From Acidimicrobiia bacterium (GTDB lineage Bacteria; Actinomycetota; Acidimicrobiia; Acidimicrobiales; AC-14): a DNA stretch of 13,042 bases. Below are positions 1,012-13,042 of this stretch, piece by piece; position 1 is the stretch's first letter, and each line of letters begins with the position of its first letter. Made by a program: the position numbers and the translations under genes. The DNA lies in assembly GCA_019243595.1 (NCBI GenBank), contig JAFAUA010000368.1, positions 1 through 13,042 on the forward strand, in the 5' to 3' direction. The notes under the pieces are model-generated. The model was given only the letters and a program-made list of their open reading frames with translations. It was not told the DNA's origin and searched no databases.

Positions 1012-1415
1012 TGCTCACCGTTCACTGGTCGACCGTCCGGTTGTTCATCCACGTGCTGGCGGCGACGGTCTGGGTCGGCGGTCAACTGACCCTCGCCGGG
1101 CTCGTCCCCGGTCTGCGCGCCATCTCCCCGGACGCGCCGCGCACGGTCGCCCGCCGGTTCAACCGGATTGCCTGGCCCGCCTTCGTGGTCCTCGTGGCCA
1201 CCGGGATCTGGAACATCGCCGCCGTCCACGCCAGCTTCCACGGTGCCTACGGGGTCACCCTGATGGTGAAGATCGGCGTCGTGGCCGCCTCGGGGCTGAG
1301 CGCCTTCCTCCATTCCACGGCCCGGTCGAAGGCCGGGCTGGCCGCCTGGGGCGCCATCGCCGGGCTCTCCGCCCTCGCCGCCCTCTTCCTGGGGATCCTC
1401 CTGGCCAGGGGTTAA
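1011..1415 (+). CDS. CopD-like four-helix integral membrane protein
   Basis: A 134-residue hydrophobic protein with four predicted membrane helices at about residues 8-31, 54-73, 82-101 and 108-131. The first helix carries LFIHVLAATVWVGGQL, with His14 and a Trp-Val-Gly-Gly turn, and the second starts after ARRFNRIAWP. This pattern resembles the CopD/PF05425 type of small membrane proteins seen in actinobacteria. His14 and His101 sit at or near membrane faces and could bind heme or copper, but that is inference. The ATG overlaps the stop of the VOC gene by one base, so expression is probably coupled. Nothing nearby is a copper gene (no CopC or copper ATPase), so a copper-resistance role should not be assumed. 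Confidence 0.72.
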   Translation: MLTVHWSTVRLFIHVLAATVWVGGQLTLAGLVPGLRAISPDAPRTVARRFNRIAWPAFVVLVATGIWNIAAVHASFHGAYGVTLMVKIGVVAASGLSAFLHSTARSKAGLAAWGAIAGLSALAALFLGILLARG

Positions 1416-1426
1416 GAACGGGGAAA

Positions 1427-1452
1427 GGGGGCACTTCGCGTTCCAGTCCCCC
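1427..1452 (+). terminator. G/C hairpin after the CopD-like gene, no U-tract
   Basis: Twelve bases past the CopD-like stop, GGGGG at 1427-1431 pairs with CCCCC at 1448-1452, and ACT/AGT extends the stem across one unpaired base. No run of T follows, so it is at best a weak intrinsic terminator. It could equally be structure in the leader of the GGDEF-EAL gene, whose start is 25 bases downstream. Confidence 0.3.
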
Positions 1453-1476
1453 TCGCTCGAGGCCGATATCTGACAG

Positions 1477-3489
1477 GTGAGGGAGCGGAGGCGCGCTCGG
1501 AGTTCGGTCAAACGCCTCTTTGGCGTGCACGCGGCCATCAGCCTTATCCCCGTGCTCGTCCTCGGCGCCGCCCTGGCCCTCAACTTCAAGTCCGAGGCCC
1601 AGCGCCGGGGCCTCAACGAAGGCGAGTCCCAGGCAACGCTGGTGGCGCAGACCGGCGTGGAACCCCTGTTTCCCGAGGGCAACCCGGTGAGCACGGCGTT
1701 GACCCAGACCCAGCGCGAGAGCCTGACGCGACTCGCGTCGAACAAGACAATCCTCCGTTTGCGGCTGCGCGACCTCGCCGGCCACGTCGTCTGGAGTGGC
1801 GACGAATCGGGGATGAACGCCGCGCCCGAGCACGAGGCAATCGAAGCGGCGTCCGGCGGACCGGTGGCCAAGCTGACCCACCTCAACGCCGACGCCAACG
1901 ACGAGGGCCCGACCGGGGTCCAGGCCGTCGAGGTCTACCGGGCGCTGGAGGCGGGCGACCCGTCCCACCGCATCGGGGTGCTCGAGATCTACCTGCCGTA
2001 CGCGCCGATCAACCAGGAGGTCAGCGCCGGACTGCACACCCTCTACCGCGACCTCGGGATCGGCCTCGGCGCGCTGTACCTCACGCTGCTCGTCATCTCG
2101 ATCTCGATGGGCCGGGGCCTCCGCCAGGAGGTGAAGTTCAACGCTTTCCTCGCCGAGCACGACCACCTCACCGACCTGCCCAACCGCACGCTCTTCCACC
2201 GGCGGGCGGCGGCTGCGCTCAAGAAGGCACGGCGCAGTCAACCGGTCGTCATCGCCATCATCGACCTCGACCGGTTCAAGGACGTCAACGACACGCTCGG
2301 CCATCACAACGGCGACCGTCTCCTCGCCGAGCTAGCGCGGCGTCTGGACGTCAACACCCGTCCGGAGGACACTGTCGCCCGCCTCGGGGGCGACGAGTTC
2401 GGCGTCATCCTCACTGGTGCCACGGATCCGGAAGAAGCGCTCTGGCGGCTGCGCGAAGTCATCGACCGCGAGGTCGAGGTCAGCGGGCTGCCGCTGTCGC
2501 TCGAGAGCAGCGTCGGCTACGTCGTCGCTCCCGAGGACGGCAACAACGTCGACGACCTCCTCCAGCGCGCCGACGTCGCCATGTACGTCGCCAAGGGCGC
2601 GCACTCGGGGGTCGTGCGCTACGACGCCGAGCAGGACGACTACGACGCGGCCAAGCTCGGGCTCATCGCCGAGCTCCGCCAGGCCATCGACGCCGGCCAG
2701 CTCGTGCTCCACTATCAGCCCAAGGCCGCCATCGGCGACGGCAAGGTCGAAGCGTTCGAGGCGCTCGTGCGCTGGGAGCACCCGGTGCGCGGCCTCGTGT
2801 ATCCCGACAGCTTCATCCCCGTCGCCGAACAGACCGACCTCATCGACAAGCTCACCGACTGGGTGTTGGCCACGGCCCTGGAAGACGTCAAGACCATGGG
2901 ACGCGGGCGTGCTGGTCTCGCGGTGGCCGTCAACGTGTCGGCACGCAGCCTGAGCAAGCCCGACTTCGCGGACCGGGTGCAGGCTTCGCTCGAGCGCGCT
3001 GGAGTGCCCGCCACGCGCTTGATCGTCGAGATCACCGAGACCGCCCTGATCGCCGACCCCGAGCGGGCCGGGGCGGCACTCGCGCAGCTCGACGCAGCCG
3101 GCGTCCGCGTCAGCATCGACGACTTCGGCCAGGGCCAGACGTCACTCGGCTACCTGTCGAACCTCCCCGTGCACGAGCTCAAGATCGACAAGAGCTTCGT
3201 GTTCGACATGCTCACCAACCCGGCCCACGCGGCCATCGTGCGGTCGATCGTCGACCTCGGCCACAACCTGCAGCTGCGCGTCGTCGCCGAGGGGGTCGAA
3301 AGCGACGCCGTGCTCGGCGGTCTGCGCAAGGCGGGCTGCGACGTCGCCCAGGGCTATCTCCTCGCCCGCCCGATGCCCCTCGCCAAGCTCGAGGCCTGGC
3401 TGGCCGACCCCGCGCGCCGGGGCGGCCGGAGCGCGAAGTCGGCGCGTCGCCGCCCGGTGACGGCGAAGCGCAAGGTTCGCGTCGGCTAG
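1477..3489 (+). CDS. Membrane-anchored GGDEF-EAL protein (cyclic di-GMP synthesis/hydrolysis)
   Basis: A 670-residue bifunctional-type cyclic di-GMP protein. Order: basic N-terminus, membrane helix about 17-35, extracytoplasmic region about 36-192 with no family I recognise, second helix about 194-211, GGDEF domain about 220-385, EAL domain about 400-645, and a basic tail rich in Arg and Lys. The diguanylate cyclase site GGDEF is intact at 304-308. RPED at 295-298, five residues before it, is a complete RxxD inhibitory site. The EAL side keeps EALVRW (Glu428), NVSARSL, EITETAL, DDFGQGQ, KIDKSF, AEGVES and AQGYL, so the phosphodiesterase residues also appear complete. GTG at 1477 is the first possible start, because an in-frame TGA lies two codons upstream, and it retains the positive residues before helix one. 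No good Shine-Dalgarno is visible. The gene ends three bases from the convergent MarR gene. Confidence 0.95.
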   Translation: MRERRRARSSVKRLFGVHAAISLIPVLVLGAALALNFKSEAQRRGLNEGESQATLVAQTGVEPLFPEGNPVSTALTQTQRESLTRLASNKTILRLRLRDLAGHVVWSGDESGMNAAPEHEAIEAASGGPVAKLTHLNADANDEGPTGVQAVEVYRALEAGDPSHRIGVLEIYLPYAPINQEVSAGLHTLYRDLGIGLGALYLTLLVISISMGRGLRQEVKFNAFLAEHDHLTDLPNRTLFHRRAAAALKKARRSQPVVIAIIDLDRFKDVNDTLGHHNGDRLLAELARRLDVNTRPEDTVARLGGDEFGVILTGATDPEEALWRLREVIDREVEVSGLPLSLESSVGYVVAPEDGNNVDDLLQRADVAMYVAKGAHSGVVRYDAEQDDYDAAKLGLIAELRQAIDAGQLVLHYQPKAAIGDGKVEAFEALVRWEHPVRGLVYPDSFIPVAEQTDLIDKLTDWVLATALEDVKTMGRGRAGLAVAVNVSARSLSKPDFADRVQASLERAGVPATRLIVEITETALIADPERAGAALAQLDAAGVRVSIDDFGQGQTSLGYLSNLPVHELKIDKSFVFDMLTNPAHAAIVRSIVDLGHNLQLRVVAEGVESDAVLGGLRKAGCDVAQGYLLARPMPLAKLEAWLADPARRGGRSAKSARRRPVTAKRKVRVG

Positions 3490-3492
3490 GAG

Positions 3493-3996
3493 CTAGCGGG
3501 CCTTGGCGGGCTCGCGCTCGCCGACCCCGCAGACGCGAGCGGCGGCGTCGGGGTGCACGTCCTGCAGCACGCGGCTGAGGACGTCGGCGAGCATGTCGGC
3601 CTCGTCGTCGCTGAGGTGGCGGCCGAAGTGCTGTTCGACGCCGCGGAGGTGCACCGGCGCCGCCGCCCGCAGGCGCGAGCGCCCAGCGGGGGTGATCACC
3701 GCGTTCCATCCACGCCGGTCGCTCGGGCACTGCTCTCGCTTCACCAGCCCGTCGGCCTCCATGCGGTCGACCAGGCGCGTCACGCCAGATGGCGTGAGCA
3801 GCAGACTGCCGGCCAGCTCGCCCATCCGCATCCGGCCCTCGGGTGCCTGGCCCAGCCAGAGCAGGACCTCGTACCAGGGAAGGGGCAACCCCTTCTCCTC
3901 CTGCAACTCTTCGCCGAGGCGCCCGACGAGGGCCGCGTGGCTGGCCAGAAAGGCGCGCCACGCCGCCGTACGCCGTTCATCGAGCTTCTGCGCCAT
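3493..3996 (-). CDS. MarR-family winged-helix transcriptional regulator
   Basis: A 167-residue cytoplasmic DNA-binding protein. The winged helix spans about residues 38-110, with recognition-helix region GELAGSLLLTPSGVTRLVDR (59-78) and the wing signature CPSDRRGWNAVITPAGR (90-106). Outer helices at both ends would form the dimer. Cys90 sits just before the wing; a Cys-Pro here is common in actinobacterial members, so redox sensing is possible but not shown. The start is the ATG at 3996. It is divergent from the YceI gene, the classic arrangement for a MarR protein acting on its own and the neighbouring promoter through a shared intergenic operator. Ligand unknown. The Ala/Arg-rich tail after residue 150 is non-conserved. 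Confidence 0.92.
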   Translation of the reverse strand: MAQKLDERRTAAWRAFLASHAALVGRLGEELQEEKGLPLPWYEVLLWLGQAPEGRMRMGELAGSLLLTPSGVTRLVDRMEADGLVKREQCPSDRRGWNAVITPAGRSRLRAAAPVHLRGVEQHFGRHLSDDEADMLADVLSRVLQDVHPDAAARVCGVGEREPAKAR

Positions 3997-4040
3997 AGCT
4001 GAATTCTACCCCCGCTTCCGGAAAATTTGTTGCTCGGAAT

Positions 4041-4062
4041 AATGTTGTGTATGCAAACAGTT
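4041..4062. promoter_or_regulatory. Candidate MarR operator between marR-type and YceI genes
   Basis: The 104-base divergent intergenic region (3997-4100) is clearly AT-richer than its surroundings. It contains an imperfect inverted repeat with arms AATGTT and AACAGT (one mismatch) around a 9-base centre, and the inner TGTT/AACA arms match perfectly. Arm size and spacing suit a MarR dimer. A shorter exact repeat, AAAC-A-GTTT, overlaps its right half. A possible but poor promoter for YceI (TTGTTG at 4027, TATGCA at 4050, 17 apart) would be covered by the site. The assignment is inference. Confidence 0.4.
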
Positions 4063-4100
4063 TACTTCCTCGTACGCCGTAGAACCCACGAGGAGGAGCC

Positions 4101-4682
4101 ATGTCCACCACCGAAGCGCAGCTGGTCCGCACCCACCAGGGCCGGGACGTCCCCGCGCCCGGGACCTATGTCATCGACACGAGCCACAGCTCCGTCGAGT
4201 TCGTCGCCCGTCACCTGGGGCTCTCCAAGGTCCGGGGCCATTTCACGAACTTCTCGGGCGACATCCAGATCGCCGAGAACCCCGAGGAGTCCTCGGTTGA
4301 GGTCGACGTCGACGTGGCCAGCGTCGAGTCCGCCGACGCCCGTCGTGACGAGCATCTCCGCAGCCCCGACTTCTTCCACGTGGAGGAGCACCCGAGCATG
4401 TCGTTCAAGTCGACGAGCGTAACGCCTGTTGACGACGGCACTTGGCAGGTCGGCGGCCTGCTGACCATCCGGGGTGTCACCCACCCGGTCGTGCTCGAGA
4501 CCGAGTTCGAGGGCGGCGAGAACACCCCCTTCGGCGACCAGCGCATCGGCTTCTCGGCGAGCACCGAGATCAACCGCGAGGACTGGGACCTCGGTTGGAA
4601 CGCCGTCCTCGAGAGCGGCGGCCTCCTGGTCGGCAAGAAGATCAAGATCGACCTGAACGTCGAGGCCATCCGCCAGAGCTGA
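4101..4682 (+). CDS. YceI-family lipocalin-like isoprenoid-binding protein
   Basis: A 193-residue protein of the YceI family, whose members form an extended lipocalin-like barrel that binds long isoprenoid chains. Family landmarks are YVIDTSHSSVEFVARHLGLS near residue 23, VRGHFTNFSG (about 44-53), the RRDEHLRSPDFF segment (about 81-92), and a C-terminal GLLVGKKIKIDLNVEA strand. No signal peptide is present, unlike the periplasmic Escherichia coli protein, so it is predicted cytoplasmic, as is usual in actinobacteria. The ATG is preceded by a strong Shine-Dalgarno (AGGAGGAG at 4091-4098). It is divergent from the MarR gene, its probable regulator, and is followed 17 bases later by the dioxygenase-like gene. 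Confidence 0.94.
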   Translation: MSTTEAQLVRTHQGRDVPAPGTYVIDTSHSSVEFVARHLGLSKVRGHFTNFSGDIQIAENPEESSVEVDVDVASVESADARRDEHLRSPDFFHVEEHPSMSFKSTSVTPVDDGTWQVGGLLTIRGVTHPVVLETEFEGGENTPFGDQRIGFSASTEINREDWDLGWNAVLESGGLLVGKKIKIDLNVEAIRQS

Positions 4683-4701
4683 CCCGCCAGAATGGGCGGG
4701 T
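4682..4701 (+). promoter_or_regulatory. Hairpin covering the GTG start of the dioxygenase-like gene
   Basis: ACCCGCC (4682-4688) and GGCGGGT (4695-4701) form a perfect 7-bp stem with the loop AGAATG. The left arm begins on the last base of the YceI stop codon and the right arm contains the first two bases of the next gene's GTG. Ribosomes finishing YceI would cover the left arm and could open the stem, so translational coupling is plausible. Without a T-run it is unlikely to be a good terminator. Confidence 0.5.
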
Positions 4702-5437
4702 GGCCGACGGCCTGACCGCCCAGCAGCGCTACTTCTTCGACGTCTACGGCTACCTGGTGCTCGACGCCGTGCTCCCCCGGCGCGACGTCGAGCACCTGGA
4801 CGCCATGGTGGAAGCTCAGCGCCTGATGCCGGCGGGCCCCGACATCGGGAGCCAGCGCTTCGGCGACGAGTTCCTGCGCTGGGACCCGCTGTTCCGCACC
4901 CTGCTCGACCACCCCACGGTGCTGCCGATCCTCCGGGACCTGCTCGGCGACCATCTGCGGCTCGATCACGCCTACGGGATCCGGATGGCTCCCGGGACAT
5001 CGGGCCTCGGTCTCCACGGAGGCGGCACGCCGTTCGACCCGTCGCAGTACTACCTGCACCGCGGCGGCCGCATGTACAACGGGCTGACCACGGTGACGTG
5101 GACGCTCGTCGACAGCGCGCCCGGCCAGGGCGGGTTCGGGTGCATCCCCGGGAGCCACAAGGCCGACGAGCACCTCCCGCCGGAGATCCCCACCGAGTGG
5201 GTGCGCGAGGTGCCGCTCGCCGCCGGGTCGGTTCTCGTCTTCACCGAGGCCCTCACCCACTGCACGATCCCCTGGACTGCGCCCTACGAGCGCCGGGCCG
5301 TGCTCTTCAAGTACTCCCCCGGCCACCTGGCGTGGAACCAGTACAAGGAGCCGCACCGCGCCCTGTGGCGGTCACTGACCGCCCAGCAGCGGCGACTGTT
5401 CCAGCCGCCGTCGATCGCCCCCCACGAACCGATCTAG
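4700..5437 (+). CDS. Phytanoyl-CoA dioxygenase (PhyH)-like Fe(II)/2-oxoglutarate protein
   Basis: A 245-residue PhyH-family protein. It opens with a typical LTAQQRYFFDVYGYLVL, contains WTLVDSAPGQGGFGCIPGSHK in the jelly-roll core, and has the distal LTHCTIPW with His187 followed by Arg198/Arg199, which would hold the co-substrate. The proximal metal motif reads His106-Gly-Gly where the classic family has His-x-Asp/Glu, so the usual acidic ligand is missing at that spot. Asp113 or another residue may serve, or the chemistry may differ. Substrate unknown. The reading frame stays open far back into YceI, but residues before the GTG at 4700 are YceI out of frame; this GTG is the only sensible start, although its Shine-Dalgarno is weak. 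The stop overlaps the convergent rhodanese stop. Confidence 0.85.
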   Translation: MADGLTAQQRYFFDVYGYLVLDAVLPRRDVEHLDAMVEAQRLMPAGPDIGSQRFGDEFLRWDPLFRTLLDHPTVLPILRDLLGDHLRLDHAYGIRMAPGTSGLGLHGGGTPFDPSQYYLHRGGRMYNGLTTVTWTLVDSAPGQGGFGCIPGSHKADEHLPPEIPTEWVREVPLAAGSVLVFTEALTHCTIPWTAPYERRAVLFKYSPGHLAWNQYKEPHRALWRSLTAQQRRLFQPPSIAPHEPI

Positions 5438-5814
5438 GGCAGTGCCTTCCAGGCCTGGAATCCGCCCTCCAAATCGGTGGCGTTGACGAGCCCGAGGTCT
5501 TGCAGGGAGGCGGCGGCCAGGCTCGAGGCGTAGCCCTCGTCGCAGACGACGACGATCTGTCGGTCGTAGTCGCCGGCATCTGTGAGCCGGTGGGCGCTTG
5601 CGGGGTCGAGGCGCCACTCGAGCACGTTGCGCTCGACGACGACCGCGCCCGGCAGCTCGCCGTGCTCGCGGCGCTGCGCCTCGCTGCGGGTGTCGACGAC
5701 GAGGGCGCCAGCGGCCATTACCGCCGCCAGGTCCTCGGCCCGAACGCGCTCGGGAATCCGCCGGCGAGCCTCGGCGAGAACGTCGTCGATCGTCCGCTCG
5801 GCCACGGCCGTCAC
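5434..5814 (-). CDS. Single-domain rhodanese (sulfurtransferase)
   Basis: A 126-residue one-domain rhodanese that would carry sulfane sulfur as a cysteine persulfide. It has the CH2A-like start VVDTRSEAQRREHGELPGAV (residues 39-58), the active-site loop VVVCDEGYAS with catalytic Cys91, and the C-terminal LEGGFQAWKAL. The loop is of the six-residue type that accepts sulfur rather than the longer Cdc25/phosphatase type. It starts with GTG at 5814, overlapping the cysteine dioxygenase stop by four bases (GTGA), so translation is coupled. Cytoplasmic; no signal peptide. Context suggests a role in cysteine or sulfur breakdown. Its TAG stop overlaps the stop of the PhyH-like gene on the other strand through a CTAG palindrome. 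Confidence 0.92.
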   Translation of the reverse strand: MTAVAERTIDDVLAEARRRIPERVRAEDLAAVMAAGALVVDTRSEAQRREHGELPGAVVVERNVLEWRLDPASAHRLTDAGDYDRQIVVVCDEGYASSLAAASLQDLGLVNATDLEGGFQAWKALP

Positions 5815-6164
5815 GATACGGCTTCAGTTCGCAGCGGCGCCCGGCCCGACGCGTCGTAGAACGTCATCGTCGACAACGGTGGCGAGTACACGTGGATGCT
5901 CAGCGCCGGGGTGTCCGAGGCGTTGCCGACGTCGTGCAGCTGGCCACGCCGGACGACACCCGTCGAGCCCGCGCCCAGGTCGACAATCGAGCGCCGACTC
6001 TCGGGGAGCACCTCGCGCAGCTCACCGCGCACGACGACGAACGCACCCGCAGCCTCGCCGTGGTCGTGCATGCCGACGTGTTGGCCCGGCGCCCACCCGA
6101 GAAGCCACGCCTCGTAGAGGTCTGTCCTCAGGAGCCGTACGTGATGGCGGCGCACGTGGTCCAC
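5811..6164 (-). CDS. Cysteine dioxygenase family cupin (start uncertain, probably longer)
   Basis: A cupin of the cysteine dioxygenase type, which oxidises cysteine to cysteine sulfinate with O2 at a three-histidine iron. Numbered from the GTG at 6164, the ligands are His33 and His35 (HDHGEAAGAF) and His77 (LHDVGN). The tail SIHVYSPPLSTMTFYD contains the conserved active-site Tyr93. Gly40 occupies the place of the cross-link cysteine of mammalian enzymes, as is normal in bacteria. The frame upstream is open to 6263 and reads EIDQIALIAGGLAASDLWTA, which looks like the family's true N-terminus, yet it contains no ATG, GTG or TTG. An ATG at 6284 is in frame but followed by a TAG at 6264-6266. 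The protein therefore probably begins at a non-standard codon or the sequence holds an error. Coupled to the rhodanese by a four-base overlap. Confidence 0.85.
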   Translation of the reverse strand: MDHVRRHHVRLLRTDLYEAWLLGWAPGQHVGMHDHGEAAGAFVVVRGELREVLPESRRSIVDLGAGSTGVVRRGQLHDVGNASDTPALSIHVYSPPLSTMTFYDASGRAPLRTEAVS

Positions 6165-6209
6165 GCGTGCGTGAGCCGTCCACAGATCGCTCGCCGCGAG
6201 ACCCCCAGC

Positions 6210-6290
6210 GATCAGCGCTATCTGATCTATCTCTAGTATCTCTACTTGTCCGATAGACTTACACTAGATATGCCGACCCGGCATGCGCAA
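6210..6290 (-). promoter_or_regulatory. AT-rich control region of the cysteine dioxygenase-rhodanese pair
   Basis: An abrupt AT-rich patch in a GC-rich chromosome, upstream of the dioxygenase. Read on the minus strand it holds a possible promoter, TTGCGC (6290-6285) and TAGTGT (6266-6261) 18 apart. It also contains a perfect 6-bp hairpin ATGCCG-GGT-CGGCAT (6270-6284) and an inverted repeat GATCA-N8-TGATC (6210-6227). Two interlocking 6-bp inverted repeats are present as well: TCTATC with GATAGA, and TCTAGT with ACTAGA. The density of short repeats suggests an operator, but I cannot name the regulator. Part of the patch also reads as the conserved N-terminus of the dioxygenase. Confidence 0.45.
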
Positions 6291-6305
6291 GCCGAATGCA
6301 ACGCC

Positions 6306-6509
6306 CTACCTCGAGGCGTCGGTGATGGCCCAGAGCAGGAACGCACCCATCGCCAAATAGGTCAGGGCGACGAGGACCGCGGCTCCGCGGTGACGTCCGG
6401 TCCCCCACGTGCCGACCAGGTACTCGCCCCGCACGGCGGCCATCACGCTGGCGGCGCCGAAGCCGACGGCCGCCGCAGCGACGCCGATCACCAGCACGCC
6501 ATGGGGCAC
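6306..6509 (-). CDS. 67-residue two-helix membrane protein, unknown function
   Basis: A small hydrophobic protein with two predicted membrane helices, about residues 4-25 and 43-62, joined by a short loop (RGEYLVGTWGTGRHRG) with several charged or polar residues. I do not recognise the family. The GTG at 6509 is the best start: it lies eight bases after the stop of the DUF4118 gene and places the first helix at the N-terminus. The frame is open further upstream, but that part overlaps the DUF4118 gene and is Arg/Pro-rich shadow. It is the last gene of the minus-strand operon with kdpE and DUF4118, so a membrane partner role in potassium or turgor sensing is possible but unproven. Confidence 0.6.
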   Translation of the reverse strand: MPHGVLVIGVAAAAVGFGAASVMAAVRGEYLVGTWGTGRHRGAAVLVALTYLAMGAFLLWAITDASR

Positions 6510-6517
6510 ACCGAAAT

Positions 6518-7255
6518 CTACGCCGCCGGGCGCGCCAATGCCGCTCCCACCTGGTCGGCCAAGGCGACCGCGCTCATGCGCCGCTCCTTGGAGACGCCGA
6601 CGCCGGGCGTCGGGATCAGCACGAACCGACCGACCGTGCGGCCGGCGGCGACGACGGGTAGTTCCACACCCTCCCGCGGGAGCTCGAACTCGCCGTTGGC
6701 GTAGCGGTGCTCCCGGCTCTCGATGACGCCGCTGTGCTCCAGTCGCCGCAGGCCGGCTTCGAACGGAGGACGTTCGAACCACGCGTTCTGCAACTCGAGC
6801 GTCTCGATGAGCTCGGCCGTCACGGCGAGCAGGAGATCCTCGACGCCCTCGCCCCCGGCAGCCATTCCCGCGATGCGGTGCATGCGCTGGAGCTGGAGAC
6901 GCTGGTCGTCGCGCTGGGCGTGGACGCGCTGGGCCCTGATGGCGATCTCGCCGATCGCCAGGCCAACAGCAAGGAGGAGCACCGTCGTCAGCACGTCGTT
7001 GCCATCGCTGATCTTCAACGAGTTGTAGGGCTTGGTCTGGAAGAAGTCGAAGGAGATGGCGGCGACGAAGGCAGAGATGACCGCCGACGCCCGGCCGCCG
7101 GTGACGGCCCCCAAGAGCACCCACAGGACGAGCACAAGGGCGACGTTGGCGTTCTGGATGTCCCCACGCACGCCGACGAGCGCCGCCGCGGTGAACAGCG
7201 CGCCAAGAGAGCCCACCGCTGCGCCTATCCAGATCTTCACACCGCGATCGCTCAT
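6518..7255 (-). CDS. DUF4118 (KdpD-type membrane sensor module) protein lacking a kinase
   Basis: A 245-residue protein matching the membrane part of KdpD sensors (DUF4118, four helices at about 11-28, 38-52, 56-70 and 87-106). The landmarks are NANVALVLVLWVLLGA and the hallmark SFDFFQTKPYNSLKISD (residues 68-84). After the last helix come a basic segment (RAQRVHAQRD), a short helical stretch, and a GAF-like end, GRFVLIPTPG and then ALADQVGAAL. There is no histidine-kinase dimerisation or ATPase domain and no N-terminal KdpD or universal-stress domain, so it cannot phosphorylate KdpE by itself. The ATG at 7255 is chosen because it gives a protein colinear with the paralogue at 8344-9087. It lies 83 bases downstream of kdpE on the same strand. 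Confidence 0.85.
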   Translation of the reverse strand: MSDRGVKIWIGAAVGSLGALFTAAALVGVRGDIQNANVALVLVLWVLLGAVTGGRASAVISAFVAAISFDFFQTKPYNSLKISDGNDVLTTVLLLAVGLAIGEIAIRAQRVHAQRDDQRLQLQRMHRIAGMAAGGEGVEDLLLAVTAELIETLELQNAWFERPPFEAGLRRLEHSGVIESREHRYANGEFELPREGVELPVVAAGRTVGRFVLIPTPGVGVSKERRMSAVALADQVGAALARPAA

Positions 7256-7317
7256 GTACCTGGTGTACTGCCGCCCACCGGCCATGACCAGCGGTTTTGC
7301 GCCCTCTTTATGAAGTG

Positions 7318-7335
7318 CCCGCGGATCTTCGCGGG
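7318..7335 (-). terminator. Hairpin just after kdpE
   Basis: CCCGCG (7318-7323) and CGCGGG (7330-7335) form a perfect 6-bp stem with a 6-base loop, beginning three bases past the kdpE stop. On the minus strand it is followed by CACTTCATAAAG, not by a T-run, so full termination is doubtful. It may cause partial termination or protect the mRNA end, separating kdpE levels from the DUF4118 gene 83 bases further on. Confidence 0.4.
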
Positions 7336-7338
7336 TCT

Positions 7339-8022
7339 TTAGCGCCCGCTTTGGAAGCGGTAGCCCATCCCGGGCTCGGTGATGAAGTACTTCGGTCTGG
7401 ACGAGTCCGGCTCCAGCTTGCGTCGCACAGCGGCCAAGTACACGCGGAGGTAGTCGGTCTCCCTCTCGTACTGGGGACCCCAGACGTCTTGCAACAGCTG
7501 CTTCTGGGAGACGAGCTTCCCCTCGTTGCGCACGAGCACCTCGACGACACCCCACTCCCTCGGCGTGAGGTGCACGGGCGTGCCATCCGCCGCCGCCGCC
7601 GTCTTGGCTGCCAAATCGAGCGTGAAGTCGTCAGTGGTGACACGCGGTTCGTCATCGGCCGGGGCTGCCCGTCGCAAGAGGGCGCGCAGGCGAGCAAGCA
7701 GCTCGTCCATGCCAAACGGCTTCGTGACGTAGTCGTCGGCGCCCGCGTCGAGGGCGTCGACCTTCGACGGCTCCCCGTGGCGCGCCGACAACACGATGAC
7801 CGGCACCGTCGTCCAGCCGCGCAAACCGCGCAGCACGTCGAGACCGTCGATACCCGGCAAACCGAGATCGAGCACGATGACGTCGGGGTGACCGTGGGCG
7901 GCCTGCTCGAGACCCTCCTCCCCCGTCGTCGCCGTGTCGACGTCATAACCCCGGGCCCGCAGGCTGATGGCAAGCGCCCGCGCAAACCGGACCTCGTCGT
8001 CGATGAGCAGAACCTTCGTCAT
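7339..8022 (-). CDS. kdpE: KdpE-type OmpR-family response regulator
   Basis: A 227-residue two-component regulator of the OmpR/PhoB class, the usual size of KdpE, which activates kdpFABC under potassium limitation or turgor stress. The receiver domain (1-118) has the acidic pocket Asp8/Asp9, phospho-acceptor Asp52 in VLDLGLPGIDG, Ser79 and Lys101 (TKPF). The winged-helix DNA-binding domain (about 128-224) carries LTPREWGVVEVLVRNEGKLV, the Lys-Gln-Leu-Leu-Gln-Asp-Val-Trp-Gly signature, and the closing GMGYRF. Both halves look functional. The ATG overlaps the stop of the upstream 71-aa gene by four bases (ATGA). Unusually, no kdpD kinase gene adjoins it in this window, and it is transcribed away from the kdp structural genes. 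The kdpE name rests on context plus sequence style. Confidence 0.93.
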   Translation of the reverse strand: MTKVLLIDDEVRFARALAISLRARGYDVDTATTGEEGLEQAAHGHPDVIVLDLGLPGIDGLDVLRGLRGWTTVPVIVLSARHGEPSKVDALDAGADDYVTKPFGMDELLARLRALLRRAAPADDEPRVTTDDFTLDLAAKTAAAADGTPVHLTPREWGVVEVLVRNEGKLVSQKQLLQDVWGPQYERETDYLRVYLAAVRRKLEPDSSRPKYFITEPGMGYRFQSGR

Positions 8023-8234
8023 GTCGGCAACTGCTGGTAGCGGCGCACGGCGATGGTCGCCCAGATCAACTCGACCGCGCCGAACGGCCATGCTCCTGAG
8101 AGGAAGCCGTACAGGCTCGAGAGCACGCACCCGATGGCGAAGAGGAGCACAAAGCTGCGACCCCTCCGCTCGAGCGCATACATCAGCATCATGAAGGTCA
8201 GCGCGCAGACGCCGTAAAGCGTGACCACAGTCAT
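8019..8234 (-). CDS. 71-residue membrane protein translationally coupled to kdpE
   Basis: A small hydrophobic protein with two or three membrane segments: about residues 3-19, 27-45 (SFVLLFAIGCVLSSLYGFLS) and 48-62 (WPFGAVELIWATIAV), ending in a basic RRYQQ tail. Arg23-Arg26 form a cytoplasm-type positive loop. The LYGFLSGAWPFGAVELIWA stretch gives the impression of a conserved hypothetical family, but I cannot name it or its function. The ATG at 8234 is the only start that includes the first helix; it has no clear Shine-Dalgarno. It is the first gene of the minus-strand kdpE operon and overlaps kdpE by four bases, so its product is made together with the regulator. It could anchor or tune the sensor complex. 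Confidence 0.78.
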   Translation of the reverse strand: MTVVTLYGVCALTFMMLMYALERRGRSFVLLFAIGCVLSSLYGFLSGAWPFGAVELIWATIAVRRYQQLPT

Positions 8235-8360
8235 TAGTGAAGCAGGACTGCCCCGTTAAGGCGCCGTGAAGATCCTTGCGATGGCCGCGAAGTCGGCGCA
8301 AAAGCGGGTGTTCACGATGGCTGCGAGGCGTACAACCTCAAGAGTGAGCCGTGAACACCG
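8235..8360. promoter_or_regulatory. Divergent kdp control region with 10-bp inverted repeat
   Basis: The 109 bases between the starts at 8234 (minus) and 8344 (plus) must hold the promoters of both kdp transcription units. GGTGTTCACG (8307-8316) and CGTGAACACC (8350-8359) are a perfect 10-bp inverted repeat 33 bases apart. A third partial copy, CCGTGAA, lies at 8264-8270. A 13-base imperfect direct repeat begins at 8280 and 8316 (GATGGCCGCGAAG and GATGGCTGCGAGG), exactly 36 bases apart. These could be regulator sites, KdpE being the obvious candidate. I see no convincing -10/-35 pair. Confidence 0.4.
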
Positions 8361-9087
8361 GATCTCGAGCGTGGCCCTCATCGCAGGGGTCACCGGGCCC
8401 TTGGCGACGGCCGCCGCGTTGATCCCTGCCCAGTCCGCGATCGGCAACACCAACGTCGCCCTCGTACTGGTTGCCGTCGTGGTGGCCGTCGCGGTCGTCG
8501 GTCGGCGAGGAGCCGCGATCGTCAGTGCGCTCTCAGCAGCCGCCTGGTTCGATTTCTTTCACACCAAGCCCCACTACTCGTTCACCATCAGTGCGCATGG
8601 CGACGTCGTGACCGCCGGCGTCTTGCTGGTCGTCGGTCTCACAGTGGGCGAGCTCGCGGTTCGCAGTCGGCGCCACCGGGAGGCCGCGGTCGACAGCAGC
8701 GCGGACATCGGACGTATCCATGCCATCGCCGAGCTGGCCGCGTCCGGCGAAGAGCCCGAGTTCGTCACGATGGCGGTGGCGACCGAGCTCACACAGATCC
8801 TCGCCCTGCGCGATTGCCGCTATGAGCCCTACTCGCCGGTCGACCGACCGAGCGCCCGAATCGAGCGCAACGGCGAGGTGACGCTCGGGCAATTCCGTTG
8901 GGGCGTCGACACGATGGGCTTGCCGACCAAGCACGTGGAACTGCTGGTCGATGCCCAAGGTCGCCACCTCGGCCGCTTCATCCTGACGCCCACACCGGGC
9001 CAACCCATTCCGTTCGACAAACGGCTCGTCGCCATTGCTCTCGCCGACCAGGTCGGCGCCGCCATGGTGACGCCACAGTCCGTCTAG
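8344..9087 (+). CDS. Second DUF4118 (KdpD-type sensor module) protein, kinase-less, first gene of the kdp operon
   Basis: A 247-residue paralogue of the protein at 6518-7255. It shares NTNVALVLVAVV (residues 35-46), WFDFFHTKPHYSFTIS (68-83), the helix ending VGLTVGELAVRSRR, the RIHAIAELAASGE stretch, and the GAF-like tail GRFILTPTPG ... AIALADQVGAAM. Four membrane helices are expected between residues 10 and 106. No kinase, ATPase or KdpD N-terminal domain exists. The frame is open from a GTG at 8266 with ATGs at 8281 and 8317, but the GTG at 8344 is preferred: it makes residues 1-130 align with the paralogue without any gap (FDFF at 69-72 in both) and leaves room for the divergent promoter. 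Nine bases separate its stop from the 51-aa gene, whose Shine-Dalgarno overlaps that stop. Confidence 0.82.
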   Translation: MSREHRISSVALIAGVTGPLATAAALIPAQSAIGNTNVALVLVAVVVAVAVVGRRGAAIVSALSAAAWFDFFHTKPHYSFTISAHGDVVTAGVLLVVGLTVGELAVRSRRHREAAVDSSADIGRIHAIAELAASGEEPEFVTMAVATELTQILALRDCRYEPYSPVDRPSARIERNGEVTLGQFRWGVDTMGLPTKHVELLVDAQGRHLGRFILTPTPGQPIPFDKRLVAIALADQVGAAMVTPQSV

Positions 9088-9096
9088 AGGGGGCCC

Positions 9097-9252
9097 ATGG
9101 CTGACGTCGCGTTCGTGACAATCATCATCGTGTTCTTCGCTCTTGCCGCGCTGTTCGTGAGGTTCTGCGACCGCGTGATCGGCAGCGAGGAGGACGCCTT
9201 CGCCGACGCCCCCGAGTCAACGGGGAACGAGCAGGGGCAGCTAGCGGCATGA
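9097..9252 (+). CDS. 51-residue single-helix membrane microprotein upstream of kdpF
   Basis: A short gene encoding one membrane helix (about residues 5-22, VAFVTIIIVFFALAALFV) followed by a charged cytoplasmic-looking tail with RFCDRVIGSEED and an acidic, low-complexity end. The ATG is preceded by a good Shine-Dalgarno, AGAGGGGG at 9086-9093, and the stop overlaps the kdpF ATG by four bases (ATGA), both strong signs of a real coding gene. I have an impression that small proteins of this kind occur in actinobacterial kdp operons, but I cannot name a family. It may be an extra small subunit or regulator of the KdpFABC pump; function is inferred from position only. Confidence 0.8.
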   Translation: MADVAFVTIIIVFFALAALFVRFCDRVIGSEEDAFADAPESTGNEQGQLAA

Positions 9253-9338
9253 GTGCCGACGACGTTGCCGGGTTGGTGATCGCCGCGCTCCTTCTGGGCT
9301 ACCTGCTGTTCTCGCTGGTCTATCCGGAGAAGTTCTGA
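9249..9338 (+). CDS. kdpF: KdpF, small subunit of the potassium-transporting P-type ATPase
   Basis: A 29-residue single-helix peptide (VAGLVIAALLLGYLLFSLVY), ending Pro-Glu-Lys-Phe, the standard form and size of KdpF, which stabilises the KdpABC complex in the membrane. The closing YPEKF is typical. It overlaps the 51-aa gene by four bases and its TGA is directly followed by the GTG of kdpA with no gap. The GGAGAAG that encodes its last residues (9326-9332) also serves as the kdpA Shine-Dalgarno. Confidence 0.95.
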   Translation: MSADDVAGLVIAALLLGYLLFSLVYPEKF

Positions 9339-11057
9339 GTGACCCTCCAGAACTGGGCTGCGCTCGCCCTTCTGATCGTCGCCATCGTCGTCACCGTGCC
9401 GCTGCTCGGTGGGTACATGGCGAAGGTCTACGACCCCACGCTCGGTCGCCCCCGCGGCGACCGCTTCTTCTCCGCCATCGAGCGCGTCGTCTACCGCTTC
9501 TGTGGTGTGAACCCCGAACGAGAGCAGCGGTGGAACGTCTACGCCCTCTCCCTGCTTGCGTTCAGCCTCGTCTCGGTCCTAGTCCTCTACGTCCAGCTCC
9601 GGCTCCAGGGCCACCTCTTCCTCAACCCCGACCACTACAAGGGCGTCGAGCCGAAGCTGTCGTTCAACACCGCCGTCAGCTTCGTCACCAACACCAACTG
9701 GCAGGCGTATGGCGACGGCGTGATGAGCCATCTCAGCCAGATGGCCGGCCTGGCCTTCCACAACTTCGTGTCGGCGGCCGCAGGTGCCGCCGTCGCCGTC
9801 GCCTTCATCCGCGGACTTGTCCGCCGCCGCACCCGCACGCTCGGCAACTTCTGGGTCGACCTCACGCGTACGTGCACCCGCATCCTGCTGCCACTGACGT
9901 TCCTCGCGTCGATCGTCCTGCTGAGCCAGGGCGTCATCGACAACTTCAACGCCTCCAAGACCGTCCACACGGTCGCGGGCCAGACCCAGACGATCCCCGG
10001 CGGCCCCGTCGCCAGCCAGGAGGCGATCAAGGAAGGCGGCCAGAACGGCGGCGGCTTCTTCGGTGCCAACTCCATCCACCCCTTCGAGAACCCCAACGGC
10101 ATCACCAATTTCCTCGAGGTCTGGCTCGAGTTGGCCATCCCGTTCTCGCTGGCCTTCACGTTCGGCAAGATGGCCCGCGACCAAAAGCAGGGATGGGTCG
10201 TCTTCGCCGTCATGTTCGCCCTGTGGCTGGCCATGCTGCTGGTCGTCGCCAACCTTGAGCCGGCCGGGAACCCACACCTGACGGCGGTAGGCGCCAACCA
10301 GAAAGTGACGGCCGTGCAGGCGGGTGGCAACTTCGAGGGCAAGGACACTCGCATCGGAAACGCCGCCTGCGGGGTGTTTGGCGGGTCGACAACGAGCACG
10401 TCGTCCGGTGCAGTCAACTGCCAGCACGACAGCCTGCTGCCGCTGAGCGGCGGGGCGACGATGGTCAACATGATGTTTGGCGAGATCAGCCCGGGCGGCA
10501 CCGGCTCCGGCCTATTCGGCATGCTGATCTTCGCCCTGCTGTCGGTGTTCATTGCCGGCCTCATGGTCGGGCGGACACCCGAGTATCTGGGCAAGAAGAT
10601 CCAGTCCCAGGAGATGAAGCTCGTCGCCCTGTACCTGTTGTTACCGGCGATCTTCATCCTCGCCTTCGCCGGAGCGGCGGTCATCATCTCGACAGCGCTG
10701 AACGCCCGGACGAACGCGGGGCCACACGGTCTCAGCGAGATCGTCTACGCCTACACGTCAGCCTTCAACAACAACGGATCTGCATTCGGCGGGTTGAGCG
10801 TCAACACGGCCTGGTACGACACGACGCTCGGGATCGTGATGCTCGCCGGGCGTCTCCTGCCGATGGTCGCCGTGCTCGCCATCGGCGGCTCGCTCGCCCG
10901 CAAGAAGCACGTCCCCGCCACCGCCGGCACGTTCCCGACCGGTACGCCGCTGTTCGGCGGCCTGGTGTTCGGTGTCGTAATCATCGTCGTCGGCCTGACC
11001 TACTTCCCGGTCGTCTCCCTCGGGCCGATCGTCGAACACCTCGCCGGGAAGTTCTGA
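9339..11057 (+). CDS. kdpA: KdpA, potassium-binding and translocating subunit
   Basis: The 572-residue channel-like subunit of KdpFABC, which selects K+ through four pore loops and passes it to KdpB. Hallmarks: TNTNWQAYGD at 117-126, GGQNGGGFFGANSIHPFENP with Asn236-Gly239, the third loop GTGSGLFGM from 387, MVGRTPEYLGKKI, and NNNGSAFGG from 477. About ten membrane helices are expected and length is normal for the family. Two cysteines, Cys344 and Cys361, flank the third-loop entry, where many homologues have none. Starts with GTG immediately after the kdpF stop and uses a Shine-Dalgarno inside kdpF. Ends nine bases before kdpB. Long open frames on the opposite strand here are compositional shadows. 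Confidence 0.98.
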   Translation: MTLQNWAALALLIVAIVVTVPLLGGYMAKVYDPTLGRPRGDRFFSAIERVVYRFCGVNPEREQRWNVYALSLLAFSLVSVLVLYVQLRLQGHLFLNPDHYKGVEPKLSFNTAVSFVTNTNWQAYGDGVMSHLSQMAGLAFHNFVSAAAGAAVAVAFIRGLVRRRTRTLGNFWVDLTRTCTRILLPLTFLASIVLLSQGVIDNFNASKTVHTVAGQTQTIPGGPVASQEAIKEGGQNGGGFFGANSIHPFENPNGITNFLEVWLELAIPFSLAFTFGKMARDQKQGWVVFAVMFALWLAMLLVVANLEPAGNPHLTAVGANQKVTAVQAGGNFEGKDTRIGNAACGVFGGSTTSTSSGAVNCQHDSLLPLSGGATMVNMMFGEISPGGTGSGLFGMLIFALLSVFIAGLMVGRTPEYLGKKIQSQEMKLVALYLLLPAIFILAFAGAAVIISTALNARTNAGPHGLSEIVYAYTSAFNNNGSAFGGLSVNTAWYDTTLGIVMLAGRLLPMVAVLAIGGSLARKKHVPATAGTFPTGTPLFGGLVFGVVIIVVGLTYFPVVSLGPIVEHLAGKF

Positions 11058-11066
11058 GGATCTGAC

Positions 11067-13042
<1,976 letters not shown>

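What the first reader, a model, noticed from the sequence alone, without database searches (positions are those of the whole stretch)
6518..9087. KdpE flanked by two kinase-less KdpD-like sensor modules and no kdpD
Two DUF4118 proteins, both ending in a GAF-like region and both without a kinase, sit on either side of kdpE, one in the kdpE operon and one heading the kdpFABC operon. Normal Kdp loci have one KdpD kinase fused to this sensor region. Stand-alone modules may form a split sensor that works with a kinase encoded elsewhere, act as decoy or dominant partners of a full KdpD, or regulate the pump directly. If kdpD lies downstream of kdpC, the modules would be added layers of control rather than replacements.
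Basis: partly seen in the sequence, partly recalled or inferred. Interest (0 to 1): 0.72.

Follow-up and report, generated by a model that had tools for sequence, protein, structure and literature searches.

The report
Stand-alone potassium-sensor modules beside potassium importers
Two small membrane proteins that look like the sensing half of the bacterial potassium sensor KdpD, with no enzyme part, belong to an old, conserved, unnamed family that tends to sit beside potassium-import genes and often carries a KdpE-type control site; what they do is untested.

Summary
The two kinase-less DUF4118 proteins are real: each is a complete protein of about 245 aa with a four-helix membrane part and a GAF-like fold, and no other recognised domain. 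"No kdpD" is wrong for the genome: a full kdpD follows kdpC on another contig, which begins in the tail of a kdpB. The modules are not decaying pieces of it: on a 68-row tree all 38 module rows form one group apart from KdpD and from a shorter DUF4118 kinase, and module 1 shows dN 0.014 against dS 0.394 between two species. A 22-bp tandem repeat found de novo upstream of modules matches the footprinted M. smegmatis KdpE box; 20 of 37 modules have one, both window modules included. Of 42 module loci, 34 lie within 5 kb of KdpA/KdpB (19) or a KimA-type K+ importer (15). Four genomes 90-98% complete have a module but no KdpD domain and no KdpA. I read the modules as non-catalytic K+-sensing co-regulators of the K+-starvation response, probably acting by contact with DUF4118 sensor kinases; direct action on importers is the main rival. 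No contact was tested. No earlier description turned up in the searches named.

The parts
6518..7255 (-). Module 1 (DUF1m): stand-alone DUF4118 + GAF-like protein, 245 aa
   Evidence: PF13493 E 1.7e-20, no other family at E 0.1; model pLDDT 85.8; GAF fold; dN/dS 0.014/0.394 between G000 and G002 over 194 codons
7339..8022 (-). kdpE, OmpR-family response regulator
   Evidence: Response_reg + Trans_reg_C; best NCBIfam model KdpE, 237 bits, below its cut-off of 325
8344..9087 (+). Module 2 (DUF2p): stand-alone DUF4118 + GAF-like protein, 247 aa from the preferred start GTG 8344 (longest frame from 8266)
   Evidence: PF13493 E 1.7e-21; 44% identical to module 1; model pLDDT 87.5
7323..7344 (-). 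KdpE-box-like tandem repeat, box 1 of module 1 (-89 from its start; overlaps the end of kdpE)
   Evidence: 14.0 bits with a matrix that excludes the window, only just above the third and fourth sites of the window at 13.6 and 12.9; exact pattern match 7327-7344
7291..7312 (-). Second, weaker box of module 1 (-57)
   Evidence: 10.4 bits
7262..7267 (-). -10-like TACACC, 6 nt before the start of module 1
   Evidence: sequence; misses the strict pattern
8254..8275 (+). KdpE-box-like tandem repeat, box 1 of module 2 (-90)
   Evidence: 22.8 bits with a matrix that excludes the window; exact pattern match 8254-8271
8286..8307 (+). Second, weak box of module 2 (-58)
   Evidence: 6.8 bits
8202..8223 (+). 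Further box-like site upstream of module 2 (-142)
   Evidence: 13.6 bits
8331..8336 (+). -10-like TACAAC, 7 nt before GTG 8344
   Evidence: 14 of 37 modules carry this pattern, 1.05% of shuffles
8019..8234 (-). Small membrane-like ORF (71 aa) overlapping the start of kdpE; no relative found in the loci searched, no Pfam match
9097..9252 (+). Small ORF (51 aa), recurrent upstream of kdpA in relatives
9249..9338 (+). kdpF (29 aa)
9339..11057 (+). kdpA
   Evidence: PF03814 E 5.9e-223 at 9369-11042
11067..13042 (+). kdpB, cut by the contig end; a kdpB tail, kdpC and kdpD stand at the start of contig C330 (L005)

Best explanation
Shown by computation: the two proteins belong to a conserved family of stand-alone modules, each made of a four-helix DUF4118 membrane part and a GAF-like domain, as in the K+-sensing core of KdpD, with neither KdpD's N-terminal serine-kinase part nor its histidine kinase. 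Most of the loci examined sit beside high-affinity K+ importers of two unrelated kinds (KdpFABC and KimA). About half of the module genes tested (20 of 37), both in the window included, carry a KdpE-type operator, and most module genomes also have a KdpD-domain protein. Inferred: they are made when the KdpE-type regulator is active (K+ shortage) and act without catalysis, as membrane K+ sensors that contact the homologous membrane/GAF part of DUF4118 sensor kinases (KdpD, and the shorter DUF4118 kinase of contig C426). They would thereby set the kinase/phosphatase balance towards KdpE and its paralogue, a feedback layer on K+ uptake. The two copies here would be two such inputs, one tied to kdpE and one to the pump operon.
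For: Domain make-up. Full kdpD after kdpC. One group apart from KdpD and DUF4118-HK (100/99). Purifying selection on module 1. Association with Kdp: KdpD domain (PF02702) in 20 of 23 module genomes against 30 of 224 others, KdpA in 19 of 23 against 22 of 224 (not corrected for kinship). Importers next door: 34 of 42 loci within 5 kb; KimA identity. KdpE box: de novo motif LL 171.5 against 73.3 +- 3.0 in 12 shuffles; 36 hits >= 17 bits in 690,904 bases, training sites and two repeated loci included, against 0-2 in Markov sequence; the M. smegmatis footprinted box (PMC5401905, passages) scores 20.3, best of 20,000 shuffles 14.5; own genome has 3 exact pattern hits, all at K+ genes, two of them known when the pattern was written. 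At least 6 Kdp/KimA neighbour changes on the module tree, hard to square with docking to one importer fold. Precedents for proteins acting on KdpD by contact: LprF/LprJ and UspC (PMC3610689, passages), PtsN (PMC8534201, passages).
Against: No direct evidence of contact with any kinase; no complex was modelled. G070 (95% complete) has a module 44 nt from KimA, no KdpD domain and no KdpA, and its only other DUF4118 match is below the cut-off at 20.4 bits, so a DUF4118 kinase partner is doubtful there. The KimA-linked clade L054/L055/L056/L058 has no KdpE box, and 17 of 37 modules lack a box at 14 bits. Module 1's own box is modest (14.0 bits; other sites in the window reach 13.6 and 12.9). Which regulator reads the box is not known: G003 and G008 have boxes although no KdpD domain or KdpA was found there. 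Not every kdp operon without a heading module has a good site: L047 19.2 and L068 20.2, but L044 13.8, L050 12.2 and none in L049. Sequence similarity to the own KdpD sensor region is weak: 21-27% over 68-97 residues.
Confidence: 0.45

Rival explanations
1. The module is a direct regulatory subunit of the K+ importers: it senses K+ (or a GAF ligand) and opens or brakes KdpFABC or KimA at the protein level, independent of any kinase.
For: In 10 of 42 loci the module lies within 80 nt of KimA on the same strand, and in 16 of 42 it stands upstream of kdpA on the same strand within 540 nt. Modules persist in genomes 90-98% complete in which neither a KdpD domain nor KdpA was found: G001, G003, G008, G070; in G001, G008 and G070 KimA is next door. 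KdpD itself controls the pump post-translationally (PMC11018627, passages and section 8).
Against: KdpFABC and KimA are unrelated importers, yet neighbours changed at least 6 times on the module tree. Module 1 here lies with kdpE, not with an importer. L038 (G003) has no importer in the stretch held.
Confidence: 0.3
2. The modules sense K+ or another ligand for a different partner, for example a hybrid kinase as in L054 (862-aa HK, module, KimA) or a c-di-AMP pathway.
For: L054 gene order and domains; G070 without another DUF4118 protein above the cut-off; GAF domains bind varied ligands (recalled).
Against: I saw a hybrid kinase beside a module in L054 only, and the neighbours of only some loci were scanned with Pfam. 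No riboswitch reached its Rfam threshold in the 10 sources scanned.
Confidence: 0.15
3. The modules are decaying fragments of duplicated KdpD genes without function.
For: They are homologous to the KdpD sensor part.
Against: One group apart from all 20 KdpD rows (100/99); dN/dS 0.014/0.394 for module 1; invariant residues and operators across genera.
Confidence: 0.03

Closest known systems
KdpD (full-length K+ sensor kinase; E. coli type)
   Same: DUF4118 four-helix membrane part followed by a GAF domain; same locus and box type
   Different: No KdpD/ASK domain, no Usp, no HisKA/HATPase; separate group on the tree
KdpD variants of the 2024 survey (KdpD/Usp-only, truncated-DHpCA, split ASK plus TM/GAF/DHpCA kinase; PMC11018627, section 8 read)
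   Same: Shortened or split KdpD chains
   Different: The versions named in that section keep the serine-kinase part or the histidine kinase; these modules keep neither. The survey counted only the full-length chain where a species had several, so such modules would not show. Its figures and supplements were not seen
NCBIfam NF038185 KdpD-like non-kinase potassium sensor
   Same: KdpD relative without a histidine kinase
   Different: That model matched residues 2-355 (KdpD/Usp part) of the full KdpD and neither module
LprF/LprJ of M. tuberculosis (accessory KdpD-binding lipoproteins; PMC3610689 and PMC5401905 passages)
   Same: Proposed role: a non-catalytic membrane partner that tunes KdpD
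   Different: Lipoproteins rather than DUF4118/GAF proteins; no comparison of sequences was made
M. smegmatis KdpE box (PMC5401905 passages)
   Same: 22-bp site matching our de novo motif, 20.3 bits
   Different: There it controls kdpFABC; here boxes also stand before stand-alone modules, a regulator gene and the DUF4118 kinase

Membership tests
KdpD sensor histidine kinase | DUF4118 four-helix membrane domain | tested here: met
   PF13493 above cut-off in both modules; helices over the four positions in both models, helices 2 and 3 running together in module 2; E. coli KdpD membrane domain 2ksf E 9.3e-10 by profile. Membrane insertion itself was not predicted separately
KdpD sensor histidine kinase | GAF domain behind the membrane part | tested here: met
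KdpD sensor histidine kinase | HisKA and HATPase_c kinase domains | tested here: not met
   No match at E 0.1; no H-box pattern in any of 37 module frames
KdpD sensor histidine kinase | N-terminal KdpD (serine kinase) and Usp domains | tested here: not met
   No PF02702 or PF00582 match at E 0.1
NF038185 KdpD-like non-kinase potassium sensor | match to the NCBIfam model | tested here: not met
   No match at E 0.01 for either module
Stand-alone DUF4118+GAF family (this report) | full-length match to profile A1, no kinase in the frame, one group on the tree | tested here: met
   370 and 367 bits (both are rows of A1); in the class sample matches counted as modules score above 118 bits, other DUF4118 matches at most 77; group 100/99
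KdpE regulon | KdpE-type 22-bp tandem repeat upstream | tested here: met
   22.8 and 14.0 bits, matrix built without the window
KdpE regulon | binding by KdpE and induction at low K+ | not testable with these tools
   needs EMSA and expression data
KdpD-binding accessory protein (LprF/LprJ, UspC, PtsN type) | physical contact with KdpD | not testable with these tools
   no complex modelled; inference from homology and gene order

The most novel reading that the evidence does not exclude
A new class of stand-alone K+ sensor: a membrane/GAF module freed from kinases that works as an exchangeable regulatory subunit on two unrelated K+ importers (KdpFABC and KimA), controlled by KdpE boxes where KdpE-type regulators exist and kept without any KdpD in some lineages.
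Probability: 0.25. Interest if true: 0.8.

Novelty: new variant of a known kind. Interest (0 to 1): 0.6.

Why it matters
In KdpD, K+ sensing, two kinase activities and the membrane part share one chain, which makes sensing hard to study by itself. A natural protein that is only the membrane/GAF part, kept by selection beside K+ importers, would let sensing be studied apart from catalysis and shows that nature uses it alone. It also points to a regulatory part shared by KdpFABC and KimA loci, and it gives a KdpE-type box for Acidimicrobiia that predicts a K+ regulon in largely uncultured bacteria.

Tried and rejected
Decaying-fragment idea: rejected by tree and dN/dS. Replacement of a lost kdpD: rejected, kdpD found. 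'Solo' modules with no K+ link: first taken at face value, then overturned for most of them when their neighbours proved to be KimA. A motif search on 16 modules then labelled solo found nothing (73.4 against 69.2 +- 2.4, max 72.9), although 4 of the 16 (L037, L038, L039, L060) have sites by the matrix trained on kdp-linked modules (18.2, 23.3, 20.5, 15.8); the KimA-linked clade L054/L055/L056/L058 has none. The own-genome pattern with up to one mismatch is hardly enriched (28 hits against 20 for the reversed control); only the exact hits count, and two of those three were known when the pattern was written. For the C426 kinase the start codon I chose gave no box within 200 nt, although two sites lie inside that frame; its true start was not settled. 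Riboswitch scan of 10 sources: none. The small ORFs at 6306-6530 and 8019-8234 have no relatives in the loci searched. The Walker-A pattern was too narrow (it missed the own KdpD), so I use the Pfam result instead. Foldseek alone gave no match at E <= 0.001; the GAF assignment rests. An earlier count said 24 of 37 modules have a site >= 14; the recount is 20 of 37. Outside Acidimicrobiia the family looks rare: 2 further genomes in a sample of 396 from the phylum at E <= 1e-25; that search scored at most 6 candidates a genome and the class search 11, so both are lower bounds.

No locus was dropped from the 42 for lack of a neighbour. The site counts use 37 modules because L042, L043, L074, L080 and L086 are cut, split or partial; 18 of the 20 sites also built its matrix. 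Not classified: 167-200-aa DUF4118 frames beside kdpD in G103 and G251 (52-56 bits).
Full report
1. What is in the window. The window is contig C521 of a fragmentary genome (3.70 Mb, 597 contigs, 81.5% complete). Titles of close records place the lineage in Acidimicrobiia. Pfam gives each module DUF4118 and nothing else at E 0.1. The modules are 44% identical to each other over 230 columns.

2. kdpD is not missing. DUF4118 occurs in four places of the genome. One is an 836-aa KdpD with KdpD, Usp, DUF4118, HisKA and HATPase domains on contig C330. C330 begins with the last codons of a kdpB, then kdpC, then kdpD, and the window's kdpB breaks off near its end. Relatives have about 28 residues between the two points, so the contigs very likely abut with some 80 bases lost; this is inference. 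A gene in which Pfam finds only a DNA-binding domain follows kdpD. The fourth DUF4118 protein is a 430-aa DUF4118 kinase with its own response regulator on contig C426, flanked by KimA-type importers.

4. A family, not a fragment. A profile search returned 529 proteins at E <= 1e-10 among the 7995 candidates scored; the 120 listed are 212-293 aa long. In 247 genomes of the class, 23 have matches above 118 bits and the next best match is 77 bits; 2 further genomes outside the class appear in a sample of 396 from the phylum. Both searches score only some candidates per genome, so they are lower bounds. On a tree of the DUF4118 domain (68 rows, 119 columns) the 38 module rows form one group (100/99), the 20 KdpD rows another (100/98) and the 10 DUF4118 kinases a third (90/84). 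The two window modules fall in different parts of the module group, each next to modules of other genera (97/85 for module 1; 90/78, weaker, for module 2). Between this genome and a second species of its genus, module 1 shows dN 0.014 and dS 0.394 over 194 codons. A recent, decaying fragment does not fit.

5. Regulation. Upstream regions of 21 kdp-linked modules gave, de novo, the 22-bp motif CGTTAAGANCG-CGTCAAGACCG, two half sites 11 bp apart (log-likelihood 171.5; 12 dinucleotide shuffles 73.3 +- 3.0, maximum 80.4). 16 of 21 carry a site of at least 18 bits. In 690,904 bases of held loci, 36 sites reach 17 bits against 0-2 in three Markov sequences; the 36 include the training sites and 2 repeats. 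Kdp operons without a heading module are an independent check with a mixed outcome: good sites in L047 (19.2) and L068 (20.2), weak ones in L044 (13.8) and L050 (12.2), none in L049. The KdpE site of M. smegmatis mapped by footprint and EMSA (PMC5401905, passages) scores 20.3 bits with this matrix, and the best of 20,000 shuffles of it reaches 14.5. With a matrix built without the window, the two best sites of the window are those before module 2 (22.8) and module 1 (14.0); the next are 13.6, also before module 2, and 12.9, inside module 1. In the whole genome the exact pattern occurs three times: before each module and before the regulator gene behind kdpD; the first two were known when the pattern was written. 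Of 8 starts examined, 7 have boxes at -90/-89 and -58/-57: modules 1 and 2, the regulator behind kdpD, L035, L036, L038 and L041; the eighth, the C426 kinase, had an unsettled start. A TACAAC-like element 6-7 nt before a start codon is found in 14 of 37 modules against 1.05% of shuffles (the pattern was written), which suggests leaderless transcripts. Overall 20 of 37 modules have a site of at least 14 bits and 17 do not. The C426 kinase region also has a pair of sites.

6. Neighbours. Of 42 module loci, the nearest K+ importer lies within 5 kb in 34: KdpA/KdpB in 19 and KimA in 15; 8 have none in the stretch held, several of them at contig ends. Orders seen: module-kdpFABC(DE), kdpC-module-kdpD, module-kdpD-kdpE, kdpE-module, module divergent from kdp, and module with KimA. 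KimA was identified by the only PDB match, 6s3k, E 1e-158 to 1e-108, for three proteins, and the others by BLAST to those three. In 10 of 42 loci the KimA gene is on the same strand within 80 nt, and in 16 of 42 the module stands upstream of kdpA on the same strand within 540 nt (distances from stop-to-stop frames). KimA is found in 115 of 247 genomes, 1-4 matches each in the table, so such adjacency is not expected by chance; no formal test was made. Kdp and KimA neighbours need at least 6 changes on the module tree (33 rows labelled), though many forks are weak. A KdpD domain (PF02702) occurs in 20 of 23 module genomes against 30 of 224 others, and KdpA in 19 of 23 against 22 of 224 (Fisher 4e-13 and 1e-13, not corrected for kinship). 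Yet G001, G003, G008 and G070 (90-98% complete) have a module while neither a KdpD domain nor KdpA was found. G001 and G003 have the DUF4118 kinase, G008 another DUF4118 frame of 645 aa, and G070 nothing else above the cut-off.

7. How it most likely works. Shown by computation: domain make-up, conservation, operators, gene neighbourhoods. Inferred: K+ shortage activates the KdpE-type regulator, which raises the modules together with the importers; the modules, having no output domain, act by contact. I prefer contact with DUF4118 sensor kinases (0.45), because the parts are homologous, KdpD-domain proteins are present in 20 of 23 module genomes, and importer neighbours changed often between unrelated kinds. 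Direct action on importers (0.30) is favoured by the tight KimA gene pairs and by G070.

8. Against what is known. The 2024 study that showed KdpD to be a serine and histidine kinase (PMC11018627; passages, section 8 read) sorted KdpD of 5495 species. The versions named in that section keep the serine kinase, the histidine kinase or both, and where a species had several chains only the full-length one was counted; a module without either part beside a full KdpD would drop out of that count. A full-text search for DUF4118 found 7 papers. In the two whose passages I opened it is a passing mention; the other five were seen only in the listing, one occurrence each. Searches on DUF4118 with KdpD, KdpE motifs, LprF/LprJ, KdpD without its kinase, KimA with KdpD and KdpD accessory proteins listed nothing on such modules, judged by titles and abstract beginnings. 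Subscription journals and preprints are not covered, so novelty is provisional.

9. Verdict. A new variant of a known kind: a conserved sensor-only relative of KdpD, often under KdpE-type boxes and tied to two importer types.

Noticed in passing
L005 (G000:C330) 3257-3808: Gene behind kdpD in which Pfam finds only a winged-helix DNA-binding domain, preceded by the genome's only exact KdpE-box pattern match outside the window; relatives occur near kdp genes in L040, L065 and L067.
   Followed up: partly
L062 (G074:C54) 1031-5848: KimA gene (box of 26.4 bits upstream), module (own box of 22.2 bits), small ORF, kdpA and kdpB in a row on one strand: both importer types together.
   Followed up: partly
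L006 (G000:C426) 8775-10927: DUF4118 kinase and response regulator between KimA-type importers, with a pair of KdpE-like sites; looks like a second K+ two-component system that could read the same boxes.
   Followed up: partly
L054 (G165:C105) 3872-9193: Hybrid histidine kinase, module and KimA in a row on one strand.
   Followed up: no
G103:C51 about 14928-15221 and G251:C128 about 3644-3946: Short DUF4118 frames (200 and 167 aa) directly beside kdpD, scoring only 52-56 bits against the module profile: perhaps another kinase-less form.
   Followed up: no
L074 (G142): Module and the kdp cluster are split by frameshifts in many places, most likely sequencing errors of that record; left as found.
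   Followed up: no
window 8019-8234 (-) and 6306-6530 (-): Two small membrane-like ORFs, one overlapping the start of kdpE and one behind module 1, without relatives in the loci searched.
   Followed up: partly
window 1477-3489 (+): GGDEF-EAL protein (670 aa) upstream on the same contig, apparently unrelated to the K+ genes.
   Followed up: no
L040 and L050 (G012:C11): Two kdp gene sets on one contig, one headed by a module and one without.
   Followed up: no
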